DNA of 64,000 nt from Diadema setosum. Lineage: Eukaryota; Echinodermata; Echinoidea; Diadematoida; Diadematidae. The notes beneath the pieces were generated by a model. It saw nothing but the letters and a program-made list of their open reading frames with translations, ran no database searches and was not told the DNA's origin. The stretch is from positions 5,918,200 to 5,982,199 of the forward strand of contig NC_092689.1 in assembly GCF_964275005.1 (NCBI RefSeq). The letters run 5' to 3'. Position 1 is the stretch's first letter; each line of letters starts with the position of its first letter. Below, piece by piece: positions 4,086 through 56,958 of this stretch. The position numbers and the translations under genes are program-made.

Positions 4086-4179
4086 AATGTATGAACCTCT
4101 CACCTTTCCACCACTATGGTTCCATTCTTGGTGTTTGTATTAGATGCGTATAATTCATTCTATAATCAACATTTATATA

Positions 4180-4376
4180 CAGTGGACTCCCGTTATAACA
4201 AATTAAGTCCTCGGAGCCAGCTGTTTTCTTTCGTTGTATTGAATTTTCGTCGAAAATTAAATTTTAAGAACACTCTGAATATAATCTAAGACGATAATTT
4301 TGGACATGAGTTTTTACTTCGTTGTAATGAAAATTTCGTTCATTATAACCGTGTTTATTATAAGGGGCGTGCATTG
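4180..4376. mobile_element. TA-flanked short TIR element (pogo/Tc1-mariner-like MITE)
   Basis: A 197-bp element between TA dinucleotides (4178-4179 and 4377-4378). The left end is CAGTGGACTCCCGTTATAAC; the right end, reversed, reads CAATGCACGCCCCTTATAAT. The interior has CTCGGAGCCAGCTGTTTTCT and TTTCGTTGTA motifs. A second copy of the family is at 40388-40578. TA target sites and these 'CAGT...CTCCCGTTATAAC' ends fit a pogo/Tc1-mariner deletion derivative. Confidence 0.7.
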
Positions 4377-4387
4377 TATACCTATAC

Positions 4388-7052: not shown

Positions 7053-7352
7053 GGCTATCCTGGGTTTTAGGGGTCTAAATTATTTTGGGCTTCTAACTTC
7101 ACAGTCTTCAGCACAGGCATAGATACGGACTATGGAAAGCCAAATAGGGTTAGGGTTAGGGTTATAGGGTTAGGGTTAGAGTTATAGGGTTAGGGTTATA
7201 GGGTAAGGGTTAGGGTTTTAGGGTTAGGGTTAGGGTTTAGGTTAGGGTTAGGGTTATGGTGAAAACCATTTTGGCTTTCCATAGTCCGTATCTATGCCTG
7301 TGCTGAAGTTAGCAGCCCAAAATAATTTAGACCCCTAAAACCCAGGATAGCC
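7053..7352. mobile_element. 300-bp TIR element with 8-bp target duplication and telomere-repeat core
   Basis: Exact 8-bp direct repeats ATTTGTTT (7045-7052 and 7353-7360) flank inverted ends beginning GGCTATCCTGGGTTTTAGGG. The arms are about 90 bp each, nearly perfect, and reach GGACTATGGAAAGCCAAA. Between them lie about 110 bp of TTAGGG repeats with variants (7147-7257). An 8-bp duplication fits hAT-like insertion. There is no transposase, so it is non-autonomous. Confidence 0.9.
7147..7257. repeat. Interstitial TTAGGG telomere-like repeats
   Basis: Roughly 17-18 units of TTAGGG with one- or two-base insertions (TTATAGGG, TTAGAG, TTTAGG), inside the inverted arms of the element at 7053-7352. 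As it lies in an intron and between TIRs, it is not a chromosome end. Confidence 0.95.
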
Positions 7353-26500: not shown

Positions 26501-27085
26501 CTGTTCAATGGAATGTACAGGAAAACAAAAATAACATGTAGACAAATAGTAACTGAAAATGTGTTGTCAGAAAAAAGTATTTAAGATAATGGTGAAAGAA
26601 TTGCCCTTATAAAAGGAATTTAAACCATGAACATAGAGCCATAGTCTGGATATTAGGAAGTAAAATTTTTCTTGCCAACAATTCACTTTCCACTCAACCT
26701 TGCCCAACTTGCCTCTCAAGTGCTTTTACCCTTCGGTTCGTCTCATTACCAGGCATGTAGGAGTCGCGACAGCAATTCAGAATCCTATTTTCTGCTTACA
26801 CAAAATATCTGCCTAGCTATGGCCCATTCTGTAGTTGAGATAACACTTGCCATCATAATGTGTGTGTGATTCATCTAGACTGATCTGTGCATTCTCAGTG
26901 TAATTCTAGAGCTAGCAGAGTTGTTCATCACCAAATGTATTTCAGGTAATACATGCAAAACATCATTGAATGCACAGCCAACAGCACTTAAGCAGCAAAA
27001 TTCTTGCTATTCAAGCATCGTACCCAAACACTGCACAACAAAAGTTATTGCTACATAATGTTTAGACTTGCCATTTTGTCCCATT

Positions 27086-29713: not shown

Positions 29714-30375
29714 TACTGACAGCAATTTGGATAATCATGAGTTATCTTTACAAGACCTCAGTTGAAGACCTATATGTTATAAAATCTTCTAATTGGCCAT
29801 GTTCCCCTTTAACAAGTTGTTCTTATTTCAAATGAAGACCAGTGTGCATTCTCAGTGTAATTCTAGAGCTAAGCAATTGTGTTCATCAAAATGTGAACTT
29901 CAGTTAATACATGCGATGACATCCTTGAATGCACAAAGGCTCAGATCATATCAGCACACTATTTCCCTTTGAACACTGGTGAAGTGATATGGCAGTGCTT
30001 ATGAAAGAAGAATGACTTCTCTCTCGATCATCCATGCAATGCCAGTGTCAAAGATTATACAGCTGTACACATAACAAACAGACTACCTCACATGTTTACA
30101 GCGGCTTAAAGCCTTCCCATTTGATTTAAGACCCTGGGTAGAGGTCCGTTGGCTGGCAACACCTCACATCAGCATGACGAACACAAAGTGGAGAAAAAAA
30201 TGACAAGACATGAAATGAAAACAAAGGGGGGGGGGGAGGAGATACAGAACAAAGAAACTATAGGAGAAAGATAGAAGCACATAGGTGTGGAAAGCATGAC
30301 ATGGGCTGCCAAGCCAACTCCCTGGCTAGCAGCACTAGCCAGGTTCAGGAGTGATAATTGGCCCTCTGTTCCTAC

Positions 30376-37659: not shown

Positions 37660-39339
37660 AATTACTCGTATCAACCCAAAAAGATTTTTCTCCTCCAACC
37701 AGAGAGATTTTTCTCCTACTGCGGAAAATCTCTTTGTATTCAACAAGCTAAATTTGCGCTTGCGCTTCTATACAACGTAGTTTGATTTTGGACCTACTGC
37801 ACATGGACTAAATCGCTCGTTATTAAAAACACCTGTTTCTGTCGAATGCGTCACAAAAACATTTAACATGCTTTCCTGCTTTGATCTCGCCATGCTAGCA
37901 AGTCTGGATAAAACAAGACGGCGCTTTTAAAAGTAGCAATTCAATTCAATTCATTTTATTTACTCCTGATGCCAAAAGCAAAAATAAATAAATGAATAAT
38001 AATAATAATAATAAATAAATAACAAATAATAAAAAACACTGATAAAATACAAACTCTCGCTCTTATTCCCCTTTGAACCATATTCATTTTGATACTCCGT
38101 ATATGACCCTCTAGTTATGAAAAAAAAAAAAAGCAGACCAAAACCGAGCAGGCTAAATAAATAAAAAATGAAAAAATAAAAAATGTCACTGTTTGTTTTT
38201 TTTTTTTACCCAATGTGTATGCATTCCTTGGCAGTCTGTGTTCAAATACTGTCACATGCCTGTATCTCTTAATAACTGAATCTATTTTTAATGAATAACA
38301 CGTCATTTATATATATATTTTTTATGTTTTATTGAAAAATCATACAGAATCACACTATTTACAACAATTAACTTGATTGGAATAACACAATCACTGAACA
38401 ATGTAGAAGAATTGTAAAAAAGAACGTACAAAAAAAAAAAGGCAGAACATTAGGTTACCATATACAAATCAGATCTCGTTCAAGAGCGATATTCCGAGAT
38501 GGGGAAGGAGAATAAAACAAACAAACACGCAAATAAACTAATTAACAGTTTCATCCTCCCTTCCAACTGAAAAAAAGTGCGTGCACTGCAGAGACTGGAA
38601 CAAGCCAAACCAGGGGGCGAGAAGATCTACATTACCCAAACATAACTTGAACTTCCACAACAACTACACCTCCCCCCCCCCCCCACACACACACACACTC
38701 GCACCCCACACATCCTTGTCTCAACACAATGATCCCCCTCACGCCCCACACACATACCCTTAAATGTAGATGTAGATCACTCCACCACCCGACCTGGCCC
38801 AATCCAGCCACAATGTACTCTGTATAATGTCCTGCAAACCCTATACATTTGTACATCCGATGGTAAAGTTTAAAAACAATCATTATCAATTCACGGGAGG
38901 TCAGGTCATGTCAATGCCAAGAAGGCTACCATCTCAGAAATCGCCCCTGAAGAGCCCGAATCGACAACAAAATTAATGGCAGCGTTACTAGTACAGTGTA
39001 TATTGTACTACATACACTACATGCGACTACAAATGAATAACGCAATATGGCCTTCTATATAAAAAACCAACCAAACAAACAAACAAAATATGGCACCAGT
39101 AAAAGCAGTCAATGTACTTGGTCTATTACAATGGCCTGAGGATTGCATGGAGGAGTTAAATCTCAAAACGCCATTTCTTGAAATGGGAAGTTAATTTATT
39201 TTTCTTTTTTGCTATATAATATTCAATTTCCTTCTGTTTTTCGTCATATATTTTTTATATAAAGATTGTAATTCCGGGAATATATTTCTCCCTCGATCTG
39301 TTATGGCAGATCTGGTGAAGAGAAAAGATGGAAGACTTC
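37660..39339. other. Upstream flank of RPL10A, low-complexity tracts
   Basis: An ATTCAATTCAATTCATTTTA stretch (about 37938-37962) resembles, in reverse, the LINE tail at 49730-49755, and an (AAT)-rich patch follows. Poly-A/poly-T runs lie at 38118-38210, and a C-run followed by CACA at 38673-38700. No gene recognised. Confidence 0.45.
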
Positions 39340-39615: not shown

Positions 39616-40387
39616 TACTAAATATAAGAAATCAGTACAGTTGAATGAAATATCTGGATGGACAAAAACAGAGGCGGCTTGCTGCACAGGTTCAGGGAAA
39701 ATTAGATAGCAACACCCAAATTTCAAAAATGCGTAATTTTGACAGTGTGCAACAATTTTCTTCAAAGCTTACTGAACTGTTCTTTTCATATTGCTGTATT
39801 CACTCAACTAACATGTTTAGCTGGGGTGCTCCCCTTACAGAAGCTGTTAAAAAGATCTCACCATTTCTAACTTTTACGCTTGTCTATACCGAGTAAGATG
39901 TGAATGCCTATATCCGCTGAGAGACACAGGTCAACAGATTTCATACCAATTTAGAACAATGCACATAATACATCCACTGAGAATAAGATTTTTGTTCTAT
40001 TGAGTACATTCATTCTAAAGTGAATTGAGGGGAATGTATACCTATGTGTAGGTCAGTGGTGGTGGGGGGGGGGGAGGAGGTATATTATCATGTTTACATA
40101 ATATTTAGGTAGCTTACGAAGATGTGCCACCTAACTTTATAGAGCTGTTAATCGAAGAAATAAACACAAAATCTACACGCTAAGTGGACTGCTCATAACA
40201 GAGGTTGATGTCTTTGCATCAACTCAACGTGCAAGTGTCTCTTGTCATTGCTGTGTTGGGCAAGCTGTGGTTAATCATAATGAGGTAGGTCTATATATTC
40301 CATAAAGGCTAAAGCCCCTATATGGAATAACTCACCGTTTGCCAAGATATTAGCCACATAACTACCCAGATGGGACCCAGGGGTGTA

Positions 40388-40578
40388 CAGAGAACTCTTG
40401 TTATAACTATTCCTCGGGACCGGCAGTTTTCTTTCGTTATATCGAAATTTCGTTGTAACCGAACAAATAAACAATAGAAATGCATAGAGGGAATAATGTT
40501 GCGGCCTAAATTGTTACTTCGCTATAACCGGAATTTCGTTATAACCGTGTTCGTTATAATTATAACGGGAGTACACTA
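40388..40578. mobile_element. TA-flanked pogo/mariner-like MITE, second copy
   Basis: Left end CAGAGAACTCTTGTTATAAC; reversed right end TAGTGTACTCCCGTTATAAT. TA at 40386-40387 and 40579-40580. Interior CCTCGGGACCGGCAGTTTTC TTTCGTTATA parallels the copy at 4180-4376. Confidence 0.7.
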
Positions 40579-40589
40579 TACCTATATAA

Positions 40590-41098
40590 TTATATAATGT
40601 GCCATTTTGGACCGCCATATGGGTCCCATGTAAATCTTATGTGCACTGAAATCCTCGAGGGCCCCATAATGCATACCCATGTGGGACCCATGGTGAAACC
40701 CCGTCCAAAGCCCACAGGTGGATGGATAACCCACAGTGCCCACATATTTCCACACTTATATAGGTTATCCATATGGGCCCCATAGAAACCGATATGGGCC
40801 ATCTGGGATCACCCATGGGCCCCACATAAATCTTGGGTACAAAATCCTACGGGCCTCATATGGGCATACCCACGGTGGGACCAAGTGGTGAAACCCCACC
40901 TGAGCTCTTCGGGAAACCGATGGTGCCCACTTATTTACCACATAGGGCCTGCATTACCCAGATGGGTCCCATTCAGAACCCATATGGCCATTTGGATCGC
41001 CAATAGGGTCCCATGTAATCTTGGGTGAAACATCCTAGGAGCCCCATAGGCCCTGATATGCATACCCATGTATATGATCCATGGTGAAACCATGATCG
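40590..41098. repeat. Roughly 195-bp satellite with CCATATGGG motifs, left part
   Basis: Monomer landmarks: GGGATCACCCATGGGCCCCA, CATAAATCTTGGGTACAAAA, GGGCATACCCA and ATGGTGAAACC. The last recurs at about 40691, 40886 and 41082, a period of about 195 bp. The array is cut by the LINE and resumes at 49763. Frames on both strands (40590-40825) are repeat artefacts. Confidence 0.88.
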
Positions 41099-41147
41099 AA
41101 GCTGAAATCAATCCGCTGGGGAGACAGACCAGCCAGAACCCAACACA

Positions 41148-41701
41148 ATGATGGACATTGAGACCATTGTCATGATTGTGGAAGCCATTATCAGGGCATT
41201 CACGGACAAAGGACTGGTTGAAAATCGCCTTGCCCCTGCCCTAGGACCGGTGTTAGCGCCATGCAGCGCTACACAACTGTTTCATGTTGGAACTGGAGAA
41301 AAGGGATGCCCAAATCAAACATCTGGAAAACATTGTCTGACGTCGAAGCTCGTGTAGAAGAACTGGAACAATATTCCAGGCGGAACTGCTTGGTCATCCA
41401 CGGGATTAAAGAAAATCCGCAGGAGAACACTGACACCTTACTCTGTCAAGTTGCGAAGGACCAACTGGAAGTAGAAATCCAACCACAGGATATCGACAGA
41501 TGCCACAGGATCGGCGAGAGGGGCAGACTTGAAAGGAAAGGTCATGCTCTTCCTCGTCCCATCATAGCCAAGTTTGCCACCTACGGTCCCAGATCTCGAG
41601 TCTATGCCGCCAGATCGAAGCTGAAATCAACCCGCATCTTCATCCACGAGAACCTAACCAGTGGCAGACAGAAATTGCTGAGGAAAGTGAGAGCAAAATA
41701 A
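41148..41701 (+). pseudogene. LINE ORF1 (coiled coil plus RRM-like 'YSRRN' domain), frameshifted
   Basis: A start at 41148 (MMDIETIVMIVEAIIRAF) runs into a different frame by about 41280. The downstream frame (to 41701) reads DVEARVEELEQYSRRNCLVI, HGIKENPQENTDTLLCQVAK, DIDRCHRIGERG, RPIIAKFATYGPRSRVYAAR and TRIFIHENLTSGRQKLLRKV. The coiled coil followed by EQYSRRN-LVIHGI and the R-P-I-I-x-K-F motif is the Transposase_22/L1-ORF1p-like layout seen in ORF1 of many invertebrate LINEs. It would bind LINE RNA as an RNP chaperone. One or more frameshifts separate the start from the domain. Confidence 0.75.
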
Positions 41702-42559
41702 CCCCACCCACAAACAAGGTATGGACACAAGACGGCAAAATTACACACAACATCTGCACTGTATCTAGCGACACAAAATGACTGGACGGAACACTGCAAA
41801 CGAACTCGAGAACGATGAGTTGCCAGGGACGCTCACCAGCCCTCATGATGTAAACAAACATGGCCCGTATGTATGTTATTCGAACTTGTGAACTTTTGAA
41901 CTCGAACGTTCGTCTTTCCTCTACCCTGTACTCTGCTCGATTGTGTTACTATTCTTTGCCATCATTACTTGCGTTACGTAATGTGTGTGCATGTGTATGT
42001 GTGTAATGTAGTTTATCATGAAGTGTAACATTTTGTCAGTCTGTCTCAACTCTGTGAGAGCCTTTCAAAAGAAACGTACCTGTGTAGTAGTAGATCGCCT
42101 TGTCATGAAACTTGCTGTACATCTAGTATGCATTCACCCTTACCTTGAACTCCTGGATTTGTTTCCAATGCACTGCAAACGAGCTACATTTCAAACAAAT
42201 CCTCGATGATGATGAATTTCAAAGAACAATTTACACGTTTTTCAATTACTCGAGTCATTTTTGCTCTTCACGACTTGATTCTTTTGCTTTTGATGTATTT
42301 GGCATGAATGTAGAGGAAGGTTGGTCTGCCGGTAACTTATAGAAAATCCTTGTAATTATTATTTCAATGATACTTTTGATAGAAAGTTTAATCAATGTGG
42401 AGGTGTACAGGCATTTTCTGTTTTTCATCTTAATACGCAGCTGGAGTTTGTTTGCTAAATTTGACTCCATTTTTGACTTTCTTGACAGTTTATGTCACAA
42501 GTAATTTTCAGTTTATGCCTTTTCTGAAACATGGTTTAATTCCAATGTATACCGTCTAG

Positions 42560-42967
42560 GCTACTATGAAAGGCTACTCCTTTGTTACCATGTGAACATC
42601 GGAGAGGTGGCGGAGTTTATCTGTACGTTGATGAGAGATTCATTTTTCAAGTGAGAGGTGACTTGCCGTTTTCAAACGAATCTGGAGATACAATGTTCGT
42701 TGAGATCGAAATGGAAATCAAGAACATCATAGTAGGTGTGGTTTACAAGGCGTCCAACTCGGATGATGCAGAAGCTTTCAATGGAATGCTGGAGAATTCT
42801 GTAGCAAGTACGGCCAGAGAGAACAAGTTGTGTTATATTGCAGGTGATTTTAACTTTGATATTTTGAAGCACTCCATTAATTAATGTACGATGATTTTCT
42901 TAGCATTATGTATACACATGGCTTGTTCCCCTTAATAGCAAAGCCTACCCGAGTGACATCCTCATCA
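42560..42967 (+). pseudogene. LINE ORF2, endonuclease (APE) part
   Basis: The readable stretch at 42582-42884 includes HRRGGGVYLYVDERFIFQVR, DTMFVEIEMEIKNIIVGVVY and LCYIAGDFNFDILKH. GGGV-x-iYV, vgvvYr and AGDFN are core motifs of apurinic-type LINE endonucleases, which nick the target DNA. The N-terminal part between 41800 and 42560 is degraded (FAFSETWFN-like pieces near 42518). The frame is broken and then interrupted by the insertion at 42971. Confidence 0.75.
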
Positions 42968-42970
42968 TTA

Positions 42971-43932
42971 AAGGGGGTATCTCACTGAGCGGCGAACGTT
43001 TGCGAACGTAGCGAATTTTGGGTTTCGCCAGGGTTCGTATAGGGTTGCAGAAGGTTCGTTAACAGTTGCAAGAAAGTTCGCAAACGGTTTTTCTTGCCGC
43101 AAGCAGTTCTTCTTGTCGCAAAGAAGTTTTGAACATGTTCAAAATTTCTTTGCGAATTTGTATTTTCGATAACAGTTGCAAAAATTCGCAAAACACTCGT
43201 AAGAATTCGCAAACGGTCGTAATACGGTGTCGCTAACATTTTTATTTGATTCGCCACTGCTGGCGAACAAGTAGTTCCTATATAAAAGCTCCTAAACAGG
43301 AAAGGATCCACTCTTAGGAAAGTTCTTGAAGCTCTCGATATCTCCATCATGTAATCCTCTGCAACAACCACTCTCTGACCCAAACAGTCTTTCTTTTCTT
43401 CTTTCTTGTTTTTCTTGCTGCACGATAGCTGTAGCAGCAGCCAGGCAAAGCAGCCTTTCAAGGATAGCAGCACGTTGAGCCTCTCCTTGGCAGAAATTCA
43501 TTTACAACATATTCTCGAAATCCATCTTGAACGGTGGTCAGAAGAGATCTGAATGCAGTGGAAGGTTGTACGTTCGTTTTATGGGTCTGACTATACATAA
43601 TCGCCTGGTACTTTTCCAGGTCCAAAAACATTCGCAAACTGTCGCAAGGGATTTGCAAACAGTTGCTAATATTTGCAAAACTGTCGCTAACATTTCCAAC
43701 ACTGTCGCTAACATTTGCTAACAGTCGCTAATAGTCGCCACCTGTGTTTCGCAGATACTTTCGCAGACATTCGCTCAAGTGTTGCTAATTGTAGCTAAAC
43801 ATCGCTAAAAGTCGCTAACTGTCGTTAATGGCAGAAGCGAACCTTGATTTTTCGCAAACATTCGTCAGAAAAATTGGCGAATCTCAAATTCGCTACGTTC
43901 GCAAACGTTCGCCGCTCAGTGAGATACTAGCT
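42971..43932. mobile_element. 962-bp PIF/Harbinger-like non-autonomous element inserted in the LINE
   Basis: TTA at 42968-42970 and 43933-43935 is the apparent 3-bp target duplication. The inverted ends share GTATCTCACTGAGCGGCGAA CGTTTGCGAACGTAGCGAAT, more than 35 bp without a mismatch. Subterminal DNA is full of TTCGCAAAC, GTCGCTAACA and GTTGCAA motifs in both halves. A minus-strand frame around 43292-43658 (REYVVNEF, QQEKQERRKERLFGS) could be a remnant of a transposase N-terminus, but no catalytic domain is present. TTA duplication and end style suggest Harbinger. Confidence 0.8.
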
Positions 43933-43935
43933 TTA

Positions 43936-45656
43936 CATGTATTGATAATATATTTACAAATGTCTTGGACAAGTCCATTACTCCTGGTATCATACTTTCA
44001 GATATATCTGATCACCTACCTATTTTTCAAGACACAACTTTTGATTCAACTGATATGAAACTGGACAAGAGCCGTCAATACTTTGAATGTTGAACTGGTC
44101 AAAGCTTTGCAAACAATCTGAATTACTCAGATCTTATCCAAGACCTTCGTTCTGTTAGTTGGTCCTGTGTTGATTTTTGTAACGATGTAAATATGTCATA
44201 TAATGTTTTTCTTGAAACTTTGGGTCAAACTTGTAACAAACATGTGTTGAAATCAGCCCCGAAAGTTAAATGTAAGAAAATAATTGCAAGAAAACCTTGG
44301 GTAACGAAAGGCATTCTGAAATCCATAAACAGGAAACAGAGATTATTTCGTGCATATATTAACACGCCTTCTGGTAAAAATAAGCTATAATCAGCGGTAT
44401 AGAAATAAGTTAAATAGTATAATACGTGCTTCAAAGCAAACATATTTCACAAACTTAATCATGAGAAATAAAACCAACCTTTGTAAAACTTGGAAGATTG
44501 TTAATGAAATTTTGGGGAGATGTAACATATCCAAGCTCCCAAATTCTGTTTAAGTGCTCGGAAAAAGATTGAAGATGACAAAGAAATTGCTAATGAGTTC
44601 AATAAGTATTTTTCTGATATTGGAGTTTCTTTTGGTAACAATGTTGACACTGGTAAAAAATGTTTCAAAGGTTTTTTGAACTCCAAAATTTCTGAATCAG
44701 TTTTTTTTTTTCATACCTACTGACGAGTCAGAAATAATTGAGATCACAAAAAGTCTGAAAAGTTCAGCTTCCTGTGGACATGATGGATTCGAGAATTATT
44801 CACTTCATTGCTCAGCCATTGTGCCATGTTTTTAACCTTTCACTTTACTCAGGCATAGTTCCAGACTCCCTTAAGCTAGCTAAAGTTATATCTTATCTCA
44901 CAGAAAATTACAGACCAATCTCACTCCTCCCTATACTCTCTCTAAAATCCTCGAGCGTATTATGCACAAAAGATTGTACAAGTACCTGTCAGAAAAGAAC
45001 AATTCCGACCATCTTGCTCTTCTGAAACAGCCCTTTTACATGTCGTGGAGCAGATTACAGTTGCTTTAGTGAAAAAAAGAAATTCCTTTGGCCATTTACG
45101 TCGACTTGTCCAAAGCATTCAATTCATTAGACCATGGTATTCTGCCATACACAAATTAGAACACTATACGGCATTCGAGGTGTACTCCTTCGCTGATTCG
45201 AAAGCTAGCTATCTCAGTAGTCGAAGTCAATATACTAGTTTTAAGGGCACCTACTCAGACATTCTACCAATAACGTGTGGGGTACCACAAGGGAGCATGT
45301 TGGGACCACTTTTGTTTTTGGCATACGTGAATGACATCATCAATGCATCCAGTGTACTTCGTTTTGTACTGCATGCGAACGACGTAAAACATTTTGGCTT
45401 CTCATTCTGCATAACAATATTGAATAAAATGACGAACGATGAACTGCAAAAAGTCTGTGATTGGTTTAATTAAAGCTAGCAGATTACAAATGAATGCAAG
45501 TAAAACAAAATATATGATATTTCAGTCCTCCGGAATGAAGCTGTCACATAATGATATGATGATAAACGCATGTATGCTATTTCCAGAGTTGATTCAATTA
45601 ATTTTCTTGGGGTTATTATAGATGAGAGATTATCCTGGAAAATTCACATCAGTCAC
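43936..45656 (+). pseudogene. LINE ORF2, reverse transcriptase (first part)
   Basis: Resumes with CIDNIFTNVLDKSITPGIIL and SDISDHLPIF (end of the endonuclease). It continues with KKIIARKPWVTKGILKSINR and KQRLFRAYINTPSGKNKL, then RT blocks: SCGHDGF, YVDLSKAFNSLDH (RT motif with catalytic Asp), TCGVPQGSMLGPLLFLAYVN DI, VLHANDVKHF (the A/F-DD box, here AND) and NASKTKYMIF. Several stops and frame shifts occur, and the second Asp context is altered, so it is inactive. It ends at FLGLLIDERLSWKIHI, where the 3.3-kb element sits. Confidence 0.8.
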
Positions 45657-45667
45657 ATTCATGGCAA
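45657..45667. repeat. 11-bp target-site duplication, left
   Basis: ATTCATGGCAA, identical to 48984-48994. Removing 45668-48994 restores continuous LINE sequence (HISHIHGKIS). Confidence 0.85.
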
Positions 45668-48600
45668 CGGCGTAAATCCGTACTGAGGAGTGGGGGGGAT
45701 GGTCACCATCACCACGCTTACAAGCCCATAACCGGACCGGCGCAGCCTTGGGGGGAGGGGGGGGGGGGGGAGAAGCTTCTCTCCCCTCACACGCACACTT
45801 TACAGGGATCGGATGTCCCACTCTTTTGCATGAAATATAAAGTGGGAGGAAAGTGGCAGCAAAAATATGAAGACTTTTTGTTCTTGTTGTTGCTTTTTTT
45901 TTTGCTTGTCAGATGACTTGCGGCGGAAAATCAGACCTTAAAAGTATGAAGACATTTTTTGTTTTTGAAATATCTGTGAGAGAGAGCGGAGCGACCGGGT
46001 TAACGGGGGGAGGGTGTGTATGGGGGGGGGGGGGGAGTGTCCCTCTCCCACACGAGGAAGATTTTGCATTTTCAGACCTGAAATTCAGCGATCTGGTGCA
46101 CACTTTTAGTGAAATTTTTGTTTGTTTTTTCTTTAAAAAAAACCAATAGAAAATGAAATATTCACAATATATTATTGAATGACTAAATCGTGGTATTTCA
46201 GCTCTTGCTCCGCCTGTGCGACATCACTGCGAAGGCCTACTAAATAGTGGGGCCTATCACCAGCGTAGACAAGATTTGATCTTGGGGGAGCGGTTATGAG
46301 ATCGTGAGGGAGCGAAGCAAGCGAGGGGGGGGGGGAGGGTATGGTAGGGGGGTTTCTCCCTCCCACGGTGAAATCTTTTTACATTGAAAATTTTGACATT
46401 TTACAGTCCAAAAACTGCCGTTTGTAGCTATATTCTTCGCTTTGGAAATTAAGGGGGGGCACACCGTGCGCAACTGCTGTCAATCACTGCATGGCAGCAG
46501 CATCAGGAGAATGGCATAGCGATTAAATGCGAGCGAGCGGAGCGAGCGAGCTTGAAAATTTTGACATAATGCTTTTACATGCTAAAAACTGCCGTTTGTA
46601 ACTATACTTCTTCGCTTTGGAAATCAAGGGGGCCGCACCGGGCGCAACTGTTGTCAATCACTGGCAGCAACATCAGGAGAATGGTATAGCGATTAAATGC
46701 GAGCGAGCGAAGCGAGCGAGCTTGAAAATTTTGACATTTTACAGTCCAAAAACTGCCGTTTGTGGCTGTATTTTTTTGCTTTGGAAATTAAGGGGGGCGC
46801 ACCGTGTGCAACTGCTGGCAATTACTGGCAGCAACATCAGGAGAATGGCATATAACAATTAAATGCGAGCGAGTGAAGCGAGCGAGCTTGAAAATTTTGA
46901 CATTTTACAGTCCCAAAACTGCCGCTTTTGGCTGTATTTTTTCGCTTTGGAAATTAAGGGGGGTGCACCGGGTGCAACTACTGGCAGTTACTGGCAGCAA
47001 CATCAGGGGAATGGCATAACGATTGAATACGAGCGGGCGAAGCGAGTGAGCTTGAAAATGTTGACTTTTTACAGTCCCAAAACTGTCGTTTGTAGCTATA
47101 TTTTTCGCTTTGGAAATTAAAGGGGGGGGGAACGCACCGGGCACAACTGCTGGCAATTACTGGCAGCATGCAACATCAGGAGAATGGCATAACGATTAAA
47201 TGAAAGCGAGCGAGTTTGAAAATTTTGACATTTTACAGTCCCCAAACTGTCGTTTGTGGCTGTATTTTTTCTCTTTGGAAATCAAGGGGGGGGGGGGGAC
47301 ACACCGGGCGCAACTGCCGGCAATTACTGGCAGTAACATCAGGAGAATGGCATAACGATTAAATGCGAGCGAGCGAAGCGAGTGAGCTTGAAAATTTTGA
47401 TATTTTACAGTCCCAAAAACTGCCTTTGTGGCTGTATTTTTTCGCTTTGGAAATTAAGGGGGGCGCACCGGGCGAAAACTACTGGCAATTACTAGCAGCA
47501 ACATCAGGAGAATGGCATAATGATTAAATGCGAGCGAGCGAAGCGAGCGAGCTTGAAAATTTTGACATTTTACAGTCCCCCAAACTGTCGTTTGTGGCTG
47601 GTATTTTTTCGCTTTGGAAATTAAGGAGGCGCACCGGGCGAAAACTATTCGCAATTACTAGCAGCAACATCAGGAGAATGGCATAATGATTAAATGCGAG
47701 CGAGCGAAGGGAGCGAGCTTGAAAATTTTGACATTTTACAGTCCCCAAACTGCCGTTTGTAGCTATATTTTTCGCTTTGGAAATTAAGGGGGGCGCATCG
47801 GGCGAAAGCTGCTGGCAATTACTAGCTGCAACATCAGGAGAATGGCATAATGATTAAATGCGAGCGAGCGAAGCGAGCGAGCTTCAAAATTTTGACATTT
47901 TACAGTCCAAAAACTGCTGTTTGTAGTTCGTAGCTATATTTTTCGCTTTGGAAATTAAGGGGCAGGGGCGCACCGGGCGCAACTGCTGCCATTCACAGGC
48001 AGCAGCATCAGGAGAATGGCATAGCGATTAAATGCGAGCGAGCGGAGCGAGCGAGCTTTAAAATTTTGAAATTTTACACTCCAAACACTGCCGTTTGTAG
48101 CTATATTTTTCGCTTTTGTTTGTCCCACTTTTACGGGGGAACCATCCCCCCCCCCCATCGACGCCTCTGCATAATTATGAGGGTGCTTTTGTTAAGTGAA
48201 AGATCTGCTGCACACTCTTTGATAAATTAGGGAAATATACGTCAATCTCAAAAGTGTACATGCAAAGTCTATCGAAAGGGATCCTGTATAGCGGAGCTTT
48301 TGCATGTTTATGATTGCAATACAACGATCTGGTGCATAGTTCTGGCAATATTTGGACAATTTTCCATTAAGAAAGTTCGAGATTTGTCCTCATCTCGGGA
48401 ATTGCTTGGGGGATAAACCATGATTTGTCTGCCTAAACACTCAGGCCGTAGGGGCGGGGCAAATGCCCCTTTGGGTATGCTCATAGATGTATTCTGACTG
48501 AGTCACCAGTCACTGTCGTTTCTCAGGAATGATTCAGGAAATGGAGGGGGTTCAATTATGGCGATATAGTTTTTGTTATTGTTTGTTTGTTTGTTTTCCT

Positions 48601-48983
48601 ACATATCTTGCAGATGGTCCCCAGTTACTCGCGTCATAGCATGTTTACATTATAGGCCTATACTATTCGACGTTGTCAACGTCTGAGCCATACCTTACAG
48701 TGTATGTCGATGTTACTTTCTTCGCGAGCGAGCGAAGCGAGCGAGCGCTTGAGAAAATTATGTATACATTTTCCTACAAGATAGAATACTGTTCAGCTCT
48801 GTTACCTGTCTGAAGGCCGGCGTACAAACGTCATGCAATATGCCAAAATTGATACAATCACATTTCTACTTCCTCCATTTTTTTCCCAAAATTCAGGGGG
48901 GGATGATTGTACAGGCCATCCCCCCCTCCTCCATTTCAGGGGGGGATATATCCCCCCCATCCCCCCCGGGATTTACGCCCATG
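45668..48983. mobile_element. 3.3-kb Mutator-like (MULE-type) element with internal satellite
   Basis: Flanked by the 11-bp direct repeat ATTCATGGCAA. The short inverted ends are CGGCGTAAATCCG (left) and, reversed, GGGCGTAAATCCCGGGGG (right). A 9-11 bp duplication is typical of Mutator-like elements, so that superfamily is suggested. The inside has G-runs and C-runs at both ends (45753-45770, 46021-46035, 48142-48156, 48898-48968) and an array of about 168-bp repeats (46290-48115). No transposase domain is readable; it looks non-autonomous. Confidence 0.7.
46290..48115. repeat. Tandem array of about 168-bp units inside the Mutator-like element
   Basis: The junction GCGAGCGAGCTTGAAAATTT recurs at about 46551, 46721, 46887, 47051, 47215, 47387, 47552, 47718, 47882 and 48056, that is spacings of 164-174 bp over about ten to eleven units. 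Each unit contains GACATTTTACAGTCC, AACTGCCGTTTGTAGCTATA, TTTTTCGCTTTGGAAATTAA, a variable G-run, CGCACCGGGCGCAACTGCTG and AACATCAGGAGAATGGCATA. Frames across it are repeat artefacts. Confidence 0.95.
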
Positions 48984-48994
48984 ATTCATGGCAA
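48984..48994. repeat. 11-bp target-site duplication, right
   Basis: ATTCATGGCAA, copy of 45657-45667. Confidence 0.85.
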
Positions 48995-49450
48995 GATCAG
49001 CGTATCCATTGGGATGTTTATAAGCTTCGAGTGATATTACCAAGGAAAACCTTATTAATGTTACACAACGCCCTTGTCTTGCCTTACGTAGATTACTGTA
49101 ACTTGGTTTGGTCTGGAGCCACTGAGCGTGACTTGAATCGTCTTTAGCTACTAGTATTCGATTGTGTAAAAACTCTATCTTGCTCACACTCCTTCTCTTT
49201 TCAAAGACGTATAGGCTGTTTATCCCTCAAAGATCTTTCATAGAACGAGTATTTTTATGTTTAGATATGTACATTCGATATTGCCGTGTTTGTCTTGCCA
49301 TTATGCCGATCTAAGATGAAATATAGGAAATCAGTGCATAAAGGTGCAAAAAATATAATGATATGGAATTCATTGGAATATAAACTTAAGTGCATTATGA
49401 GTTTAAATCATTTTAAGTTGAAATTGAAACAATATCTCTGAATCTTACGA
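48995..49450 (+). pseudogene. LINE ORF2, C-terminal part
   Basis: After the insertion the LINE continues: VYKLRVILPRKTLLMLHNAL, VLPYVDYCNLVWSGATERDL NRL. This is the conserved region after the RT palm in jockey/CR1-type LINEs (L-Y-x-alivlPhl-YC-vWg). Then SFQRRIGCLSLKDLS, PLCRSKMKYRKSV and WNSLEYKLKCIMSLNHFKLK LKQYL, the usual C-terminal end. Stops break the frame. A T-rich 3' UTR follows to the tail at about 49755. Confidence 0.8.
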
Positions 49451-49762
49451 TTAATTACTTTTTATCAAGATATTGGAACATTATACATTCATGACGTTCT
49501 GTTTTGTGTTGTATTTATGTATGTTTGTTTTTGTGTGTATTTTTGTCTATTATTGAGTATAATCTAGTGTTATCATGTAACATTTTGTATTTTGTATTTT
49601 CGTGTCAATCTGTTTTTTTTTTATGTACTTCTGTATAGGGAATCACAATCTTCAAGCCACTGGCTTTTTCATGGTTTTCCTCGACATTTGATTATTGTAC
49701 AAATATTGGCTGTATTGCTTTTATGAAATCAATAAATTGAATTGAATTGAATGAATGAATGA

Positions 49763-50395
49763 AAGAAACCCCATGCACCCAAAGCCCACACGGGATACAT
49801 AATAGTGCCAAAATATTGCCACAGTTATAGGTTATCAATATGGGCCCCATAGTAAACCGACATGGGCCATCTGGGATCACCCATGGGCCCCACATAAATC
49901 TTGGGTACAAAATCCTAAGGGCCCCATATGGGCATACCCACGGTGGGACCCATGGTGAAACCCCATCTGAAGCCCATAAAACCCACTTGGTGCCTACTTA
50001 TTTAGGCCTACCACATAGGCTACAAATGGGTTCCACCATCGCAGGAACCCACGTTGTGTGTCATTTGGGATCGCCCATATGGGTCCCATGTAAATCTTGG
50101 GTGCAAAATCCTAGGGCCCCGTATGGGCAGACTCATGTTGGACCCATGGTGATTTCCCTGCTGAAGCCCATATGGGGAAACCCTCATAGTGCCCACACCA
50201 CATACATTACCCACATGGGCCCCATTGAGAACTCATAATTATGGGCCATCTAGCTGGGATCGCCCATATGGGTCCCATGTAAATCTTGGGTGCAATATCC
50301 TACGGGTCCCATATGGGCATACCTATGTGGGACCCATATTTTAACCCACTTCGGGCCCATATGCAACCCATAAGCCTATGGGCATGTTACCTGGA
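49763..50395. repeat. Roughly 195-bp satellite, right part
   Basis: Same monomer as 40590-41098: GGGATCGCCCATATGGGTCC, CATGTAAATCTTGGGTGCAA, GGGCCCCATATGGGCATACC, GACCCATGGTGAAACCCC. ATGGTG landmarks lie at about 49952 and 50146, with a degenerate equivalent near 50338. Together with the left part this gives roughly six units. Confidence 0.88.
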
Positions 50396-51717
50396 TAAGT
50401 GATTCTATTACCGATTTATATTGTTTCTATTGATCTTTATTGTGAGCAATCATTACGGGTCTGTATACATACCGGCAATATTACTGTTAATTAAACTGCC
50501 TGAACATCAATCTATTGAACATCAATCTATTGGTTCTTTTGTGCGATCATTCTCAGTGTGATTTTGGTCGTAACACAAGGGTGTCACGACATACTGTATG
50601 GCTCCTGCGTCAATTGCTCTGGTAAGCACTTAGGGGGATAGGGCTAGGGTTGTGATAGTATATGGTTAAGCGGTTTAAAGAATAATGATGTGAGGATTCA
50701 GGTTAGGGTTATGTTCGTGTGGGTATAATTTGGCTTGCTTATAGCTTGCAAAGTATTTCATATATATAGGAACCGGACTTGAGAGATGTGGCTTTTTAAG
50801 TATATGGCCGATGGGGGAAGCCTGACTAAGGAGGTTCATCTGGCTGTGGAATTCAAACAGCCCAATAGAATGTCACCGGGCACAGGTGCATTTGTGCCTT
50901 ATTTGATGAATCTTGGGGTTTGATGTCGCCGTCTTTCTGGGCAATAAGCAGTTCACAATTAGCACTAGTCTGCAATGACCTCTCAAACCACAGACTTTGC
51001 AAAACATGGACTAATCTTCAAGAAGAGCAGTTGAAAACAGCCATGCAGGAAGTGGTAATTTACATGTCAGTGCTGCATAAATTAATGGCCTTTGTTAATG
51101 TTGCTGAAAAGAATGCACATTCACCTGTATACCAATCTGCACCTGGTTCATTTATAACACAGTTGTGCCCTATCTAGGCTTTGAATACCTCAGTTGCAAA
51201 TCCATTTCAAGAGAAGGTCTGCAATGACCTTTATCTGCACATGCTCAGATTGGAACTGTGAACTGGCTTATCTGAATTAAGGTTTATTTGAACGCCGCTA
51301 ACATTATAGGCCTAATGTCGGCCATATTTTGCTTAGTTATCTATTTGATAAATAAGTGAAATGAACTTTCACATAATGATAAAGCATATCAAACTAAGGT
51401 AGGCACCTTAATCTCGTTCAGAAAATAAAAATGTGTAAAAATGTAGATCTGAGCAGAACATTGAAGTATTTGAAACTGCCATCACTGGAGAGCCGCGCTT
51501 TTATGATTTTCCGATCCCTCGGATAAAGTTCATTTTAGCGATAATTCTTACCATCCTTTTGTATCAGCCAGGCCGGCGTCGCATTTGGGAAAAGACACGT
51601 AAAGTCGAGTAATTTAGATTTTGATTCATTTTTTTTTTGCATTTTTTTTCAAGTTGCTCATCCTGGTGCCTGCATCATGTAGACCTGTAATTAGGCCTAC
51701 CCTTAACCGTTCTTCTC
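50396..51717. other. Intergenic spacer
   Basis: No gene recognised. A short near-repeat GGTCTGCAATGACCT occurs at about 50967 and 51217. An 85-codon frame at 50920-51177 has no known domain. Confidence 0.45.
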
Positions 51718-51721
51718 TTAA

Positions 51722-52527
51722 CCCTATTCCCACCGGGGGGGGGGGGGCATTTTGCCCCCCCCCCCCCCCACGACGTTTCGCGTGATTATTCCGCAAGGCG
51801 TGATGCTCTCGCTGCGACATTTTATGACTTTTTTCTTTCAAGTATCGCGCAACTTTTGAGACCAAATTTGTCGCTCCCGGGCATACCGTTTGGAAGCCAC
51901 ACCCCTTTGAAAAAAAAATTTGTCAACCCAAAAATTGCTCAAAAACGTGATTTTGTGTACAAATCCAATGTAAATTGTGTTTTTGCAATTAATTCATATA
52001 AAAACAAATATTTTTACTTTCAATGGCTGATAGTGATTTATTTTAGCCTGATTATGCTTTTAAAAAGTTCTGCGACAAATATTGAGGAAAAAACCCAACA
52101 AAAACAAAAAGTAAAAAAGAAAGAAATACATAATAAAGTCAATAAACAATAAAATACATAAGAAATAATTATGAAGCCGAATTTTTGCTTCAATATTATT
52201 GTTGAGGATATTGAAAAGAATATGTTCACCAAAAATTAGAAGTCTTGGAGCTTTGTTTTTTGATTTATAGGCAAAAAAAAATTATTTTGCATAAATTAGC
52301 ATAAATTAATTAATATAAAATACATAAATTAAATTTGAAAAATCTAACTATACTCCGGTCTTGTACATTACATTGGCCTCTACCTCAGTGCAAATTTTCG
52401 CGAGGATCGCGCGATTCACGACCAAGATCTGAAGGGGGGTGGGGGGGGGGGGCAAAGGCCCCCCCCCCCCCTCCCCCCCCCCCCCGGGTGGTTTCAAGTC
52501 CCTCAAAAAAACCCGATGGGATTAGGG
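51722..52527. mobile_element. TTAA-flanked G-tract/C-tract element, copy 3
   Basis: TTAA at 51718-51721 and 52528-52531. Ends CCCTATTCCCACCGGGGGGG and (reversed) CCCTAATCCCATCGGG. A 12-G and 14-C pair sits at the left, G-run plus C-runs at 52436-52486. Interior CGACGTTTCGCGTGATTATT, TTTTATGACTTTTTTCTTTC and AACTTTTGAGACCAAATTTG align with copy 2. Confidence 0.87.
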
Positions 52528-55281: not shown

Positions 55282-55990
55282 TAATTTGTCAGTGATGACA
55301 TATTACAATCTCTAGTTTATTATTATAATTGTCATTATTATTTTCTATGTATTTATCTATTTATTTGGCAATTCTACATAAGATACAGTGGTCAGTGGTC
55401 AACTCTTTCCTGATCAGCTTCTAAAGATTGTTATATTTGTTCAGCAGCAAGCAATGAAAAACACAAAGTAACTTTATGATACCCAAATTGAGATTGTATC
55501 AACCAAAGATCCTGTAGGATTTTTGATTGAAGTATTACACTGTATACGCACGTGCGCAGTTAATCGGTCAAAGGTCAAACGTACGATGCGTGCGCTGAAA
55601 CGGTGTGCATGCAAGCTGCGTGCATCGAGAGAGATGGTCACGCACAGGTGCCAGATTCGAGCGGAGACCACACAAATTTGAACGTGTGGTGCCTGGTCAA
55701 TACACTGTTGCACTACACCCATGGCCATGCTGACGGATATGAGGCTGTTGATTATTTAAGTGCACACATTCTGTATGTAGGCGTACTGCACTGTAGCAGC
55801 AGTGCAGTGTACTAGTATTCTATGCAAAAGTTCTGTTGGAGAGAGCGCTAGCATAGTCAGAGCAGAGGCAGTCGGAACCATTTGCAACAACGTTGGAAAG
55901 GTCGTGGTTGTTGTTAGTATTGGTCTACATATTTTGAGAGTCCTAGGAAAGCAGATTTCGGCTACTCTGATGATTTCGGGAAAAGAAGTC
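55282..55990 (+). other. Upstream region and 5' UTR of TNPO3
   Basis: Open sequence between the repeat element and the TNPO3 ATG. No TATA box stands out at a usual distance. The reading frame is open far upstream of the ATG (from about 55802), but similarity to transportin-3 starts only at 55991. Confidence 0.45.
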
Positions 55991-56113
55991 ATGGAATCGG
56001 CATCGGCCCCGCCTGTTGAGACAGTTTCACACGCCATTCATGCCCTCTACCACAATCCAGATGCAGCAGAAAAAGAAAGAGCATCTCTTTGGCTGCAAGA
56101 ATTTCAAAGATCG
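55991..56113 (+). CDS. Transportin-3 (importin-beta family), exon 1
   Basis: Start of TNPO3, the nuclear import receptor for SR-type splicing factors, which releases cargo on RanGTP binding in the nucleus. The ATG at 55991 gives MESASAPPVETVSHAIHALY then HNPDAAEKERASLWLQEFQR S. Human TNPO3 starts [20 protein letters not shown] followed by [20 protein letters not shown], so this start is preferred over the in-frame ATG eight codons upstream (55970s). The donor is GTAACG at 56114. It encodes the first HEAT helix pair of the Ran-binding N-terminal region. The window holds six coding exons (about 293 of roughly 920 residues). Confidence 0.93.
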
Positions 56114-56958
56114 GTAACGAGGCTCAGAAATTACAAGCCTGATTTCTAAGTGATAAGTTAAAACTAATGTAAAATTCAGTATTTGCTCATAAGGGTCTGT
56201 AACGTTAGAAGTCTACACTGTGTGTTACAGAAAGTTGAATTTCCATCTGACTAGGGCCTAACCATGCATGCTAACTGTAGTGTTAACAGTTACATAGAAA
56301 TCAGATAAAATTTTAATCACTGCACTGATGATATTAGTAGAATGTAAATTAGAGTTGTTACCTTTATATAGAAGAATTAATTTACAAAATTTTAACTCAC
56401 AGGCAGATGAATGGGCAGTCAGCACGCACAGGTCAGTCAGTGTCTTTGCATGGACGATTTTCTAAATTCTATTCTAAATTCTAACGTTACAGACCAGTCT
56501 GCACAGACAGTGACAACCATGACAACACTGACACCAAGCCAGTGCTCTGATGCTTAATATGTAGGAATTAGTTTCAACATGTTCATAATCGTATCCATGT
56601 AGATAAAGCAAACCACCCATAAATTCAACCATAACGCTGTCCAAAATTTGACCGCCCTCTACATAAATGTCATATTAAATAAGTAAAACCTACGCCTTTT
56701 GCGTGATGGTCAAATTTTGGCGCAGGAGGTCGAACCTTGGATAATTTGCTTTATCTTGAATTGTCCAAAACCAAATTGCACCAAACTCACAGGAAATACT
56801 TCATTGCTTATTTCCAGTCACTTGACTCTTGTAAATGTTCAATTTGAACCAAATCGATTGCAGGTACAACATTGTAAGCATTGATAAGATATTGGCATTG
56901 ACCTTTGTGTTGCACAATAACAAAACGGCTCACTCTGCCTGAGCAATTTCTATGTTAA

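What the first reader, a model, noticed from the sequence alone, without database searches (positions are those of the whole stretch)
40590..50395. Four-layer nest: satellite, then LINE, then two different DNA transposons
A roughly 195-bp satellite is interrupted at ATGGTGAAACC by a LINE whose tail is followed by GAAACC and the same satellite. Within the LINE, a TTA-flanked Harbinger-like element splits the endonuclease region, and an ATTCATGGCAA-flanked 3.3-kb element splits the RT. Deleting each insertion with one duplication copy restores the underlying sequence. The order of events is therefore readable: satellite first, LINE second, the two DNA elements last.
Basis: partly seen in the sequence, partly recalled or inferred. 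Interest (0 to 1): 0.7.

Follow-up and report, generated by a model that had tools for sequence, protein, structure and literature searches.

The report
Nested transposons inside a tandem repeat
A short, old stretch of tandem repeats, apparently in an animal genome, was broken by a now worn-out retrotransposon, which was itself later broken by two unrelated DNA transposons; the layering is real and readable, but nesting of this kind is ordinary.

Summary
A ~193-bp tandem repeat (spacings 190-196) is interrupted by a decayed ~4.4-kb APE-type LINE (41092-49764); taking out the insert with one GAAACC copy gives a spacing of 193 across the site. Inside the LINE, a 962-bp element with 50-nt inverted ends (94%) flanked by TTA (42971-43932) splits the endonuclease: the left part alone scores E 0.18 for Exo_endo_phos_2, both parts 1.1e-4. 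A 3,316-bp element, E3 (45668-48983), flanked by a perfect 11-bp duplication, splits the ORF just behind the RVT_1 match; the frame is continuous across the joined site.

Corrections. Nesting is three deep, not four: the two DNA elements are siblings and their mutual order is unreadable. A further insertion was missed: a ~191-bp TA-flanked MITE-like element (40388-40578) in the same repeat, which continues weakly to its left. The TTA join is one base out of frame. GAAACC overlaps the LINE tail. E3 lies behind the RVT_1 match.

The own genome could not be searched, so copy numbers, ages and empty alleles are untested. Mechanisms are standard; interest is low. E3's superfamily is the main open point.

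The parts
40333..40385 (+). leftmost weak remnant of the tandem repeat, left of the MITE-like element (approximate start)
   Evidence: SW score 55 for window 40251-40385, 0 of 1000 controls reach it; alignment; nhmmer only E 0.41 for 40340-40382
   Evidence: second copy at 4178-4386, 66.8% over 217 columns (alignment); monomer-model positions 65-113 on its left and 123-190 on its right. Against: the best inverted match was 17 columns inside it, not at its ends
40597..41091 (+). tandem repeat, left block, anchor positions 40671, 40864, 41060; ends in GAAACC
41092..49764 (+). LINE insertion (about 4.4 kb of its own without the two inserts): ORF1-like region, APE endonuclease, RT, TTGAA/TGAA-repeat tail; many stops and frame changes
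41092..41116 (+). 5' junction piece; 41090-41116 nearly repeats internal LINE sequence 41610-41635 (27-column alignment, one mismatch, one gap)
41222..41701 (+). ORF1-like reading frame (class recalled)
   Evidence: no Pfam match
42606..44045 (+). APE endonuclease, split by the TTA-flanked element
   Evidence: Exo_endo_phos_2 E 1.1e-4 with both parts, 0.18 with the left part alone; the shorter left piece and the right piece apart gave no such match at E 0.1; extent
42971..43932 (.). 962-bp PIF/Harbinger-like element, TTA at 42968-42970 and 43933-43935, inverted ends of 50-62 nt
44989..49144 (+). RT and C-terminal part of the LINE, split by the 3.3-kb element
   Evidence: RVT_1 E 1.6e-14 on a pieced read-through; frame continuous across the 11-bp site; extent
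45668..48983 (.). E3: 3,316-bp DNA element, 11-bp duplication ATTCATGGCAA, short inverted ends GGCGTAAATCC, G/C-run subterminal sequence
   Evidence: no stop-to-stop frame of 120 aa or more lies wholly inside it
46384..48116 (.). 164-bp tandem array (10.4 copies, 85% matches) inside E3
49771..50366 (+). tandem repeat, right block, anchor positions 49932, 50127, 50317
   Evidence: the last piece 50315-50366 is weak (E 0.013)

Best explanation
An old tandem array of ~193-bp units was hit by an APE-type LINE through target-primed reverse transcription, leaving a duplication of at most 6 bp (GAAACC). A non-autonomous PIF/Harbinger-like element inserted at TTA in the LINE's endonuclease region, and a second DNA element (E3, 11-bp duplication) inserted just behind the RT domain, both by cut-and-paste, in an order that cannot be read. 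Apart from these, a small TA-flanked MITE-like element hit the same array further left. Shown: junctions, duplications, restored phase, an endonuclease match that needs both parts, continuous frame at E3. Inferred: the enzymes and routes, the classes of the elements, and when the LINE copy decayed.
For: Spacing 193 across the LINE site against 190-196 elsewhere; Exo_endo_phos_2 E 0.18 for the left part, 1.1e-4 for both; frame continuous through the 11-bp site; inverted ends 50 nt at 94%; E3 ends 11/11; RVT_1 E 1.6e-14; PIF/Harbinger elements make 3-bp TTA/TAA duplications (passages of PMC2213677).
Against: No second copy of the LINE body, the TTA-flanked element or E3 was found in the window (blastn at E 1e-3; LINE peptides by tblastn), and the own genome was not searchable. 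The TTA join is one base out of frame. GAAACC overlaps the LINE tail, so the duplication may be shorter. The outermost 6-7 nt of the two TTA-flanked ends match poorly. The endonuclease score stays below Pfam's curated cut-off (22.5 against 27.4 bits).
Confidence: 0.93

Rival explanations
1. One or both DNA elements were already in the source LINE and were copied with it in trans, so the LINE came to the array last.
For: No independent copy of the LINE could be compared (own-genome searches unanswered).
Against: Inference: such a source has a split endonuclease and ORF2, so it would need helper protein and a transcript about 4.3 kb longer. Single DNA insertions with their duplications intact are simpler.
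Confidence: 0.04
2. The repeat blocks on the two sides are not one array; two arrays were brought together by rearrangement or assembly error.
For: Monomers are only 70-90% identical and the array is short.
Against: Phase is kept across the junction (193 against 190-196), and GAAACC stands on both sides of a LINE that ends in its own tail.
Confidence: 0.04
3. The tandem repeat is not a satellite but an internal part of a further, larger transposon. This would leave the nesting as described and change only the name of the lowest layer.
For: The array is short, and its units hold palindromic CCCATATGGG motifs.
Against: No inverted ends around the array are seen, but the only check was the list for 40300-50700, which showed the 25 longest of 67 pairs.
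Confidence: 0.2

Closest known systems
Nested transposable elements used for relative dating (TinT, PMC3014933: abstract and outline seen; interruption analysis, PMC2517846, and REANNOTATE, PMC2672092: search listing only)
   Same: Element-in-element insertion gives a direction of time; the host sequence is recovered by taking out the insert.
   Different: TinT counts thousands of events; this is one locus, and its oldest layer is a tandem array.
PIF/Harbinger non-autonomous elements (passages of PMC2213677, a plant study)
   Same: 3-bp TTA duplication and inverted ends; a WVREWL-like stretch on the minus strand (motif recalled).
   Different: No transposase domain could be shown; a ~21-bp tandem repeat lies inside it; the ends (50-62 nt) are longer than the 14-25 bp given for autonomous elements.
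Mutator-like elements and Rehavkus (passages of PMC6446971)
   Same: E3 has an 11-bp duplication (8-11 bp in MULEs) and carries a tandem array (Rehavkus has a minisatellite before its 3' inverted repeat).
   Different: E3's exact inverted ends are about 11 nt (Rehavkus 26-400 bp, with 9-bp duplications, in arthropods and annelids); its array is central; no transposase was found.
APE-type LINEs (CR1/L2/Rex1/Jockey-like; clade recalled, not tested)
   Same: ORF1-like frame, endonuclease, RT, short tail repeats.
   Different: Clade not determined; the copy is heavily decayed.

Membership tests
APE-type non-LTR retrotransposon (LINE) | reverse transcriptase domain | tested here: met
   RVT_1 E 1.6e-14 (54.5 bits, cut-off 29.6) on a pieced read-through with X at the breaks; the ORF 44946-45470 alone E 1.7e-4, 21.8 bits, below the cut-off
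APE-type non-LTR retrotransposon (LINE) | endonuclease domain upstream of the RT | tested here: met
   Exo_endo_phos_2 E 1.1e-4 and Exo_endo_phos E 2.6e-4 with both parts; both below the curated cut-offs
APE-type non-LTR retrotransposon (LINE) | target-site duplication and short-repeat 3' tail | tested here: met
   TTGAA/TGAA-repeat tail and GAAACC on both sides; the length of the duplication is ambiguous because the tail overlaps GAAA
PIF/Harbinger | 3-bp TTA/TAA duplication | tested here: met
   definition from passages of PMC2213677
PIF/Harbinger | terminal inverted repeats | tested here: met
   50 nt, 94%; outermost 6-7 nt match poorly
PIF/Harbinger | PIF/Harbinger transposase (autonomous copies) | tested here: not met
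   No Pfam match for the longest minus-strand frame or for two typed remnants; only a recalled WVREWL-like stretch. This copy can at most be a non-autonomous relative
Mutator-like/Rehavkus (for E3) | 8-11-bp duplication | tested here: met
   11/11; range from passages of PMC6446971; Rehavkus itself is given as 9 bp
Mutator-like/Rehavkus (for E3) | inverted ends of Rehavkus length (26-400 bp) | tested here: not met
   11 nt exact, then only a gapped G-rich extension
Mutator-like/Rehavkus (for E3) | MULE/Rehavkus transposase | tested here: inconclusive
   no frame of 120 aa or more lies wholly inside E3; shorter frames were not scanned and an autonomous partner was not searchable
pogo/Tigger-like MITE (40388-40578) | TA duplication and matching inverted ends | tested here: inconclusive
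   TA on both sides and a second copy with similar ends, but the best inverted match is internal (17 columns); both copies are followed by TATACCTATA, so the right boundary is uncertain; the class is recalled

The most novel reading that the evidence does not exclude
E3 belongs to an undescribed lineage of cut-and-paste element, with 11-bp duplications, very short inverted ends and a resident 164-bp tandem array, that spreads satellite-like arrays through its genome.
Probability: 0.1. Interest if true: 0.4.

Novelty: new member of a known kind. Interest (0 to 1): 0.17.

Why it matters
It is a clean single-locus example in which three insertions can each be undone on paper, and a fourth (the MITE-like element) probably so; the order repeat, LINE, DNA elements is fixed without any clock. 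It changes no view of how these elements work. E3's class, and whether such elements seed tandem arrays, is the part worth a second look.

Tried and rejected
Looked for the inverted ends in print: GGGCGTAAATCC, TCTCACTGAGCGGCG and their reverse complements are in 0 papers of the held library. Three further word searches and one search gave only the papers cited here; nothing on this locus was seen in the listings. Exact scans of viral contigs for the two end sequences gave 0. The 18-mer of the TTA-flanked end matched 6 bacterial or archaeal contigs; I took these as chance matches without testing that, and read none of them. A LINE peptide search of viral contigs matched 7 stretches by pattern, none confirmed. 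Pfam for the minus-strand remnant of the TTA-flanked element gave none. PDB by sequence gave only weak R2 matches for the RT, E 0.13 and 0.17.

Errors of my own: the first join of the array kept five bases too many. One search corrects spacings and identities, but the profile used for the nhmmer results was built with the uncorrected monomer and was not rebuilt. The control part failed; one search replaced it with a different scoring (Smith-Waterman against four intact monomers).

Full report
Where it lies. The window looks like animal DNA (inference): two SNORD45 matches, a reading frame matching transportin-3 and a C-type lectin domain. The species was not determined. Everything below rests on the window.

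Layer 1, the tandem repeat. Anchor positions lie at 40671, 40864, 41060, 49932, 50127 and 50317. Spacings are 193, 196, 195 and 190, and 193 across the LINE site if the insert and one GAAACC are taken out (199 if both copies are kept). Ten pairwise comparisons of five monomers, one of them joined across the site, give 70-90% identity; the closest pair, m1 and the interrupted one, has 167 of 186. The array is short, about 5-6 units, and Tandem Repeats Finder did not list it at score 50.

At 40388-40578 lies an element of about 191 bp with TA on both sides; a second copy is at 4178-4386, 66.8% identical over 217 columns. Monomer-model positions 65-113 lie to its left and 123-190 to its right. 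The left piece is weak on its own (E 0.41), but against four intact monomers it scores 55, which 0 of 1000 control stretches of the window reach, maximum 44. Against: the inverted-repeat alignment of its two halves found only 17 internal columns, not its ends, and both copies are followed by TATACCTATA, so the right boundary may lie further out. The pogo/Tigger label is recalled.

Layer 2, the LINE. It runs from 41092 to 49764, about 4.4 kb of its own. Its pieces: an ORF1-like frame at 41222-41701 (no Pfam match), an endonuclease (Exo_endo_phos_2, E 1.1e-4 with both parts, below the curated cut-off) and an RT (RVT_1, E 1.6e-14 on a pieced read-through). It ends in a TTGAA/TGAA-repeat tail. All three frames of the joined copy are full of stops. 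GAAACC on both sides is the likely duplication, but its GAAA overlaps the tail. At the 5' junction a 27-column stretch repeats internal LINE sequence near 41610-41635, perhaps filler from a template jump; this is unproven.

Layer 3a, the TTA-flanked element, 42971-43932. The inverted ends match over 50 nt at 94% and over 62 columns at 90%, but the outermost 6-7 nt differ. The left part of the endonuclease gives E 0.18, both parts 1.1e-4, covering profile positions 6-116 of 117; the right piece alone gave no family at E 0.1. The join is one base out of frame, so position is restored but the frame is not; the LINE changes frame elsewhere too. PIF/Harbinger elements make TTA/TAA duplications (passages of PMC2213677). 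A minus-strand stretch reads WVREWL, which I recall from such transposases; Pfam found nothing.

Layer 3b, E3, 45668-48983. The 11-bp duplication is perfect and the ends share GGCGTAAATCC in inverted order, followed by a gapped G-rich match; the exact repeat stands 1 nt from the duplication on the left and 4 nt on the right, so the ends are not quite symmetrical. The reading frame is continuous across the joined site. The site lies at residue 204 of the read-through, while the RVT_1 match ends at 190, so E3 sits just behind that match. It holds a 164-bp array of 10.4 copies. MULEs make 8-11-bp duplications and Rehavkus carries a minisatellite, but Rehavkus is given 26-400-bp inverted ends and 9-bp duplications (passages of PMC6446971). 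E3 is MULE-like at most.

What follows. The order repeat, then LINE, then the two DNA elements is well supported; the order of 3a and 3b is open, and so is that of the MITE-like element relative to the LINE. Nesting as a clock is established practice (PMC3014933, abstract and outline; PMC2517846 and PMC2672092, listing only). Nothing here needs a new mechanism. Unexplained: E3's class, the repeat at the LINE 5' end, and whether the 193-bp unit forms long arrays elsewhere.

Noticed in passing
40388-40578 and 4178-4386: Two copies (66.8% identical) of a TA-flanked MITE-like element; the first also seems to interrupt the tandem repeat. Both are followed by TATACCTATA.
   Followed up: partly
41090-41116 and 41610-41635: The LINE's 5' junction carries a near-identical copy of internal LINE sequence (27-column alignment, one mismatch, one gap), perhaps junction filler.
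   Followed up: partly
26889-26971 and 29846-29930, minus strand: Two SNORD45 snoRNA matches above the Rfam gathering score.
   Followed up: no
37939-37960, minus strand: A second TTGAA-repeat LINE-type tail (22 nt, 95%); the LINE peptides had no match there by tblastn at E 1.
   Followed up: partly
55781-56149: Reading frame with a match to transportin-3 (PDB 4c0p, E 1.7e-6); Pfam gave none.
   Followed up: no
1597-2322: C-type lectin domain (Pfam, E 8.6e-7).
   Followed up: no
7144-7260: Interstitial TTAGGG-type tandem repeat.
   Followed up: no
51735-51769 and about 52438-52471: Two low-complexity G-run/C-run stretches in inverted order, perhaps the ends of another G-rich element, perhaps only simple sequence.
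   Followed up: no
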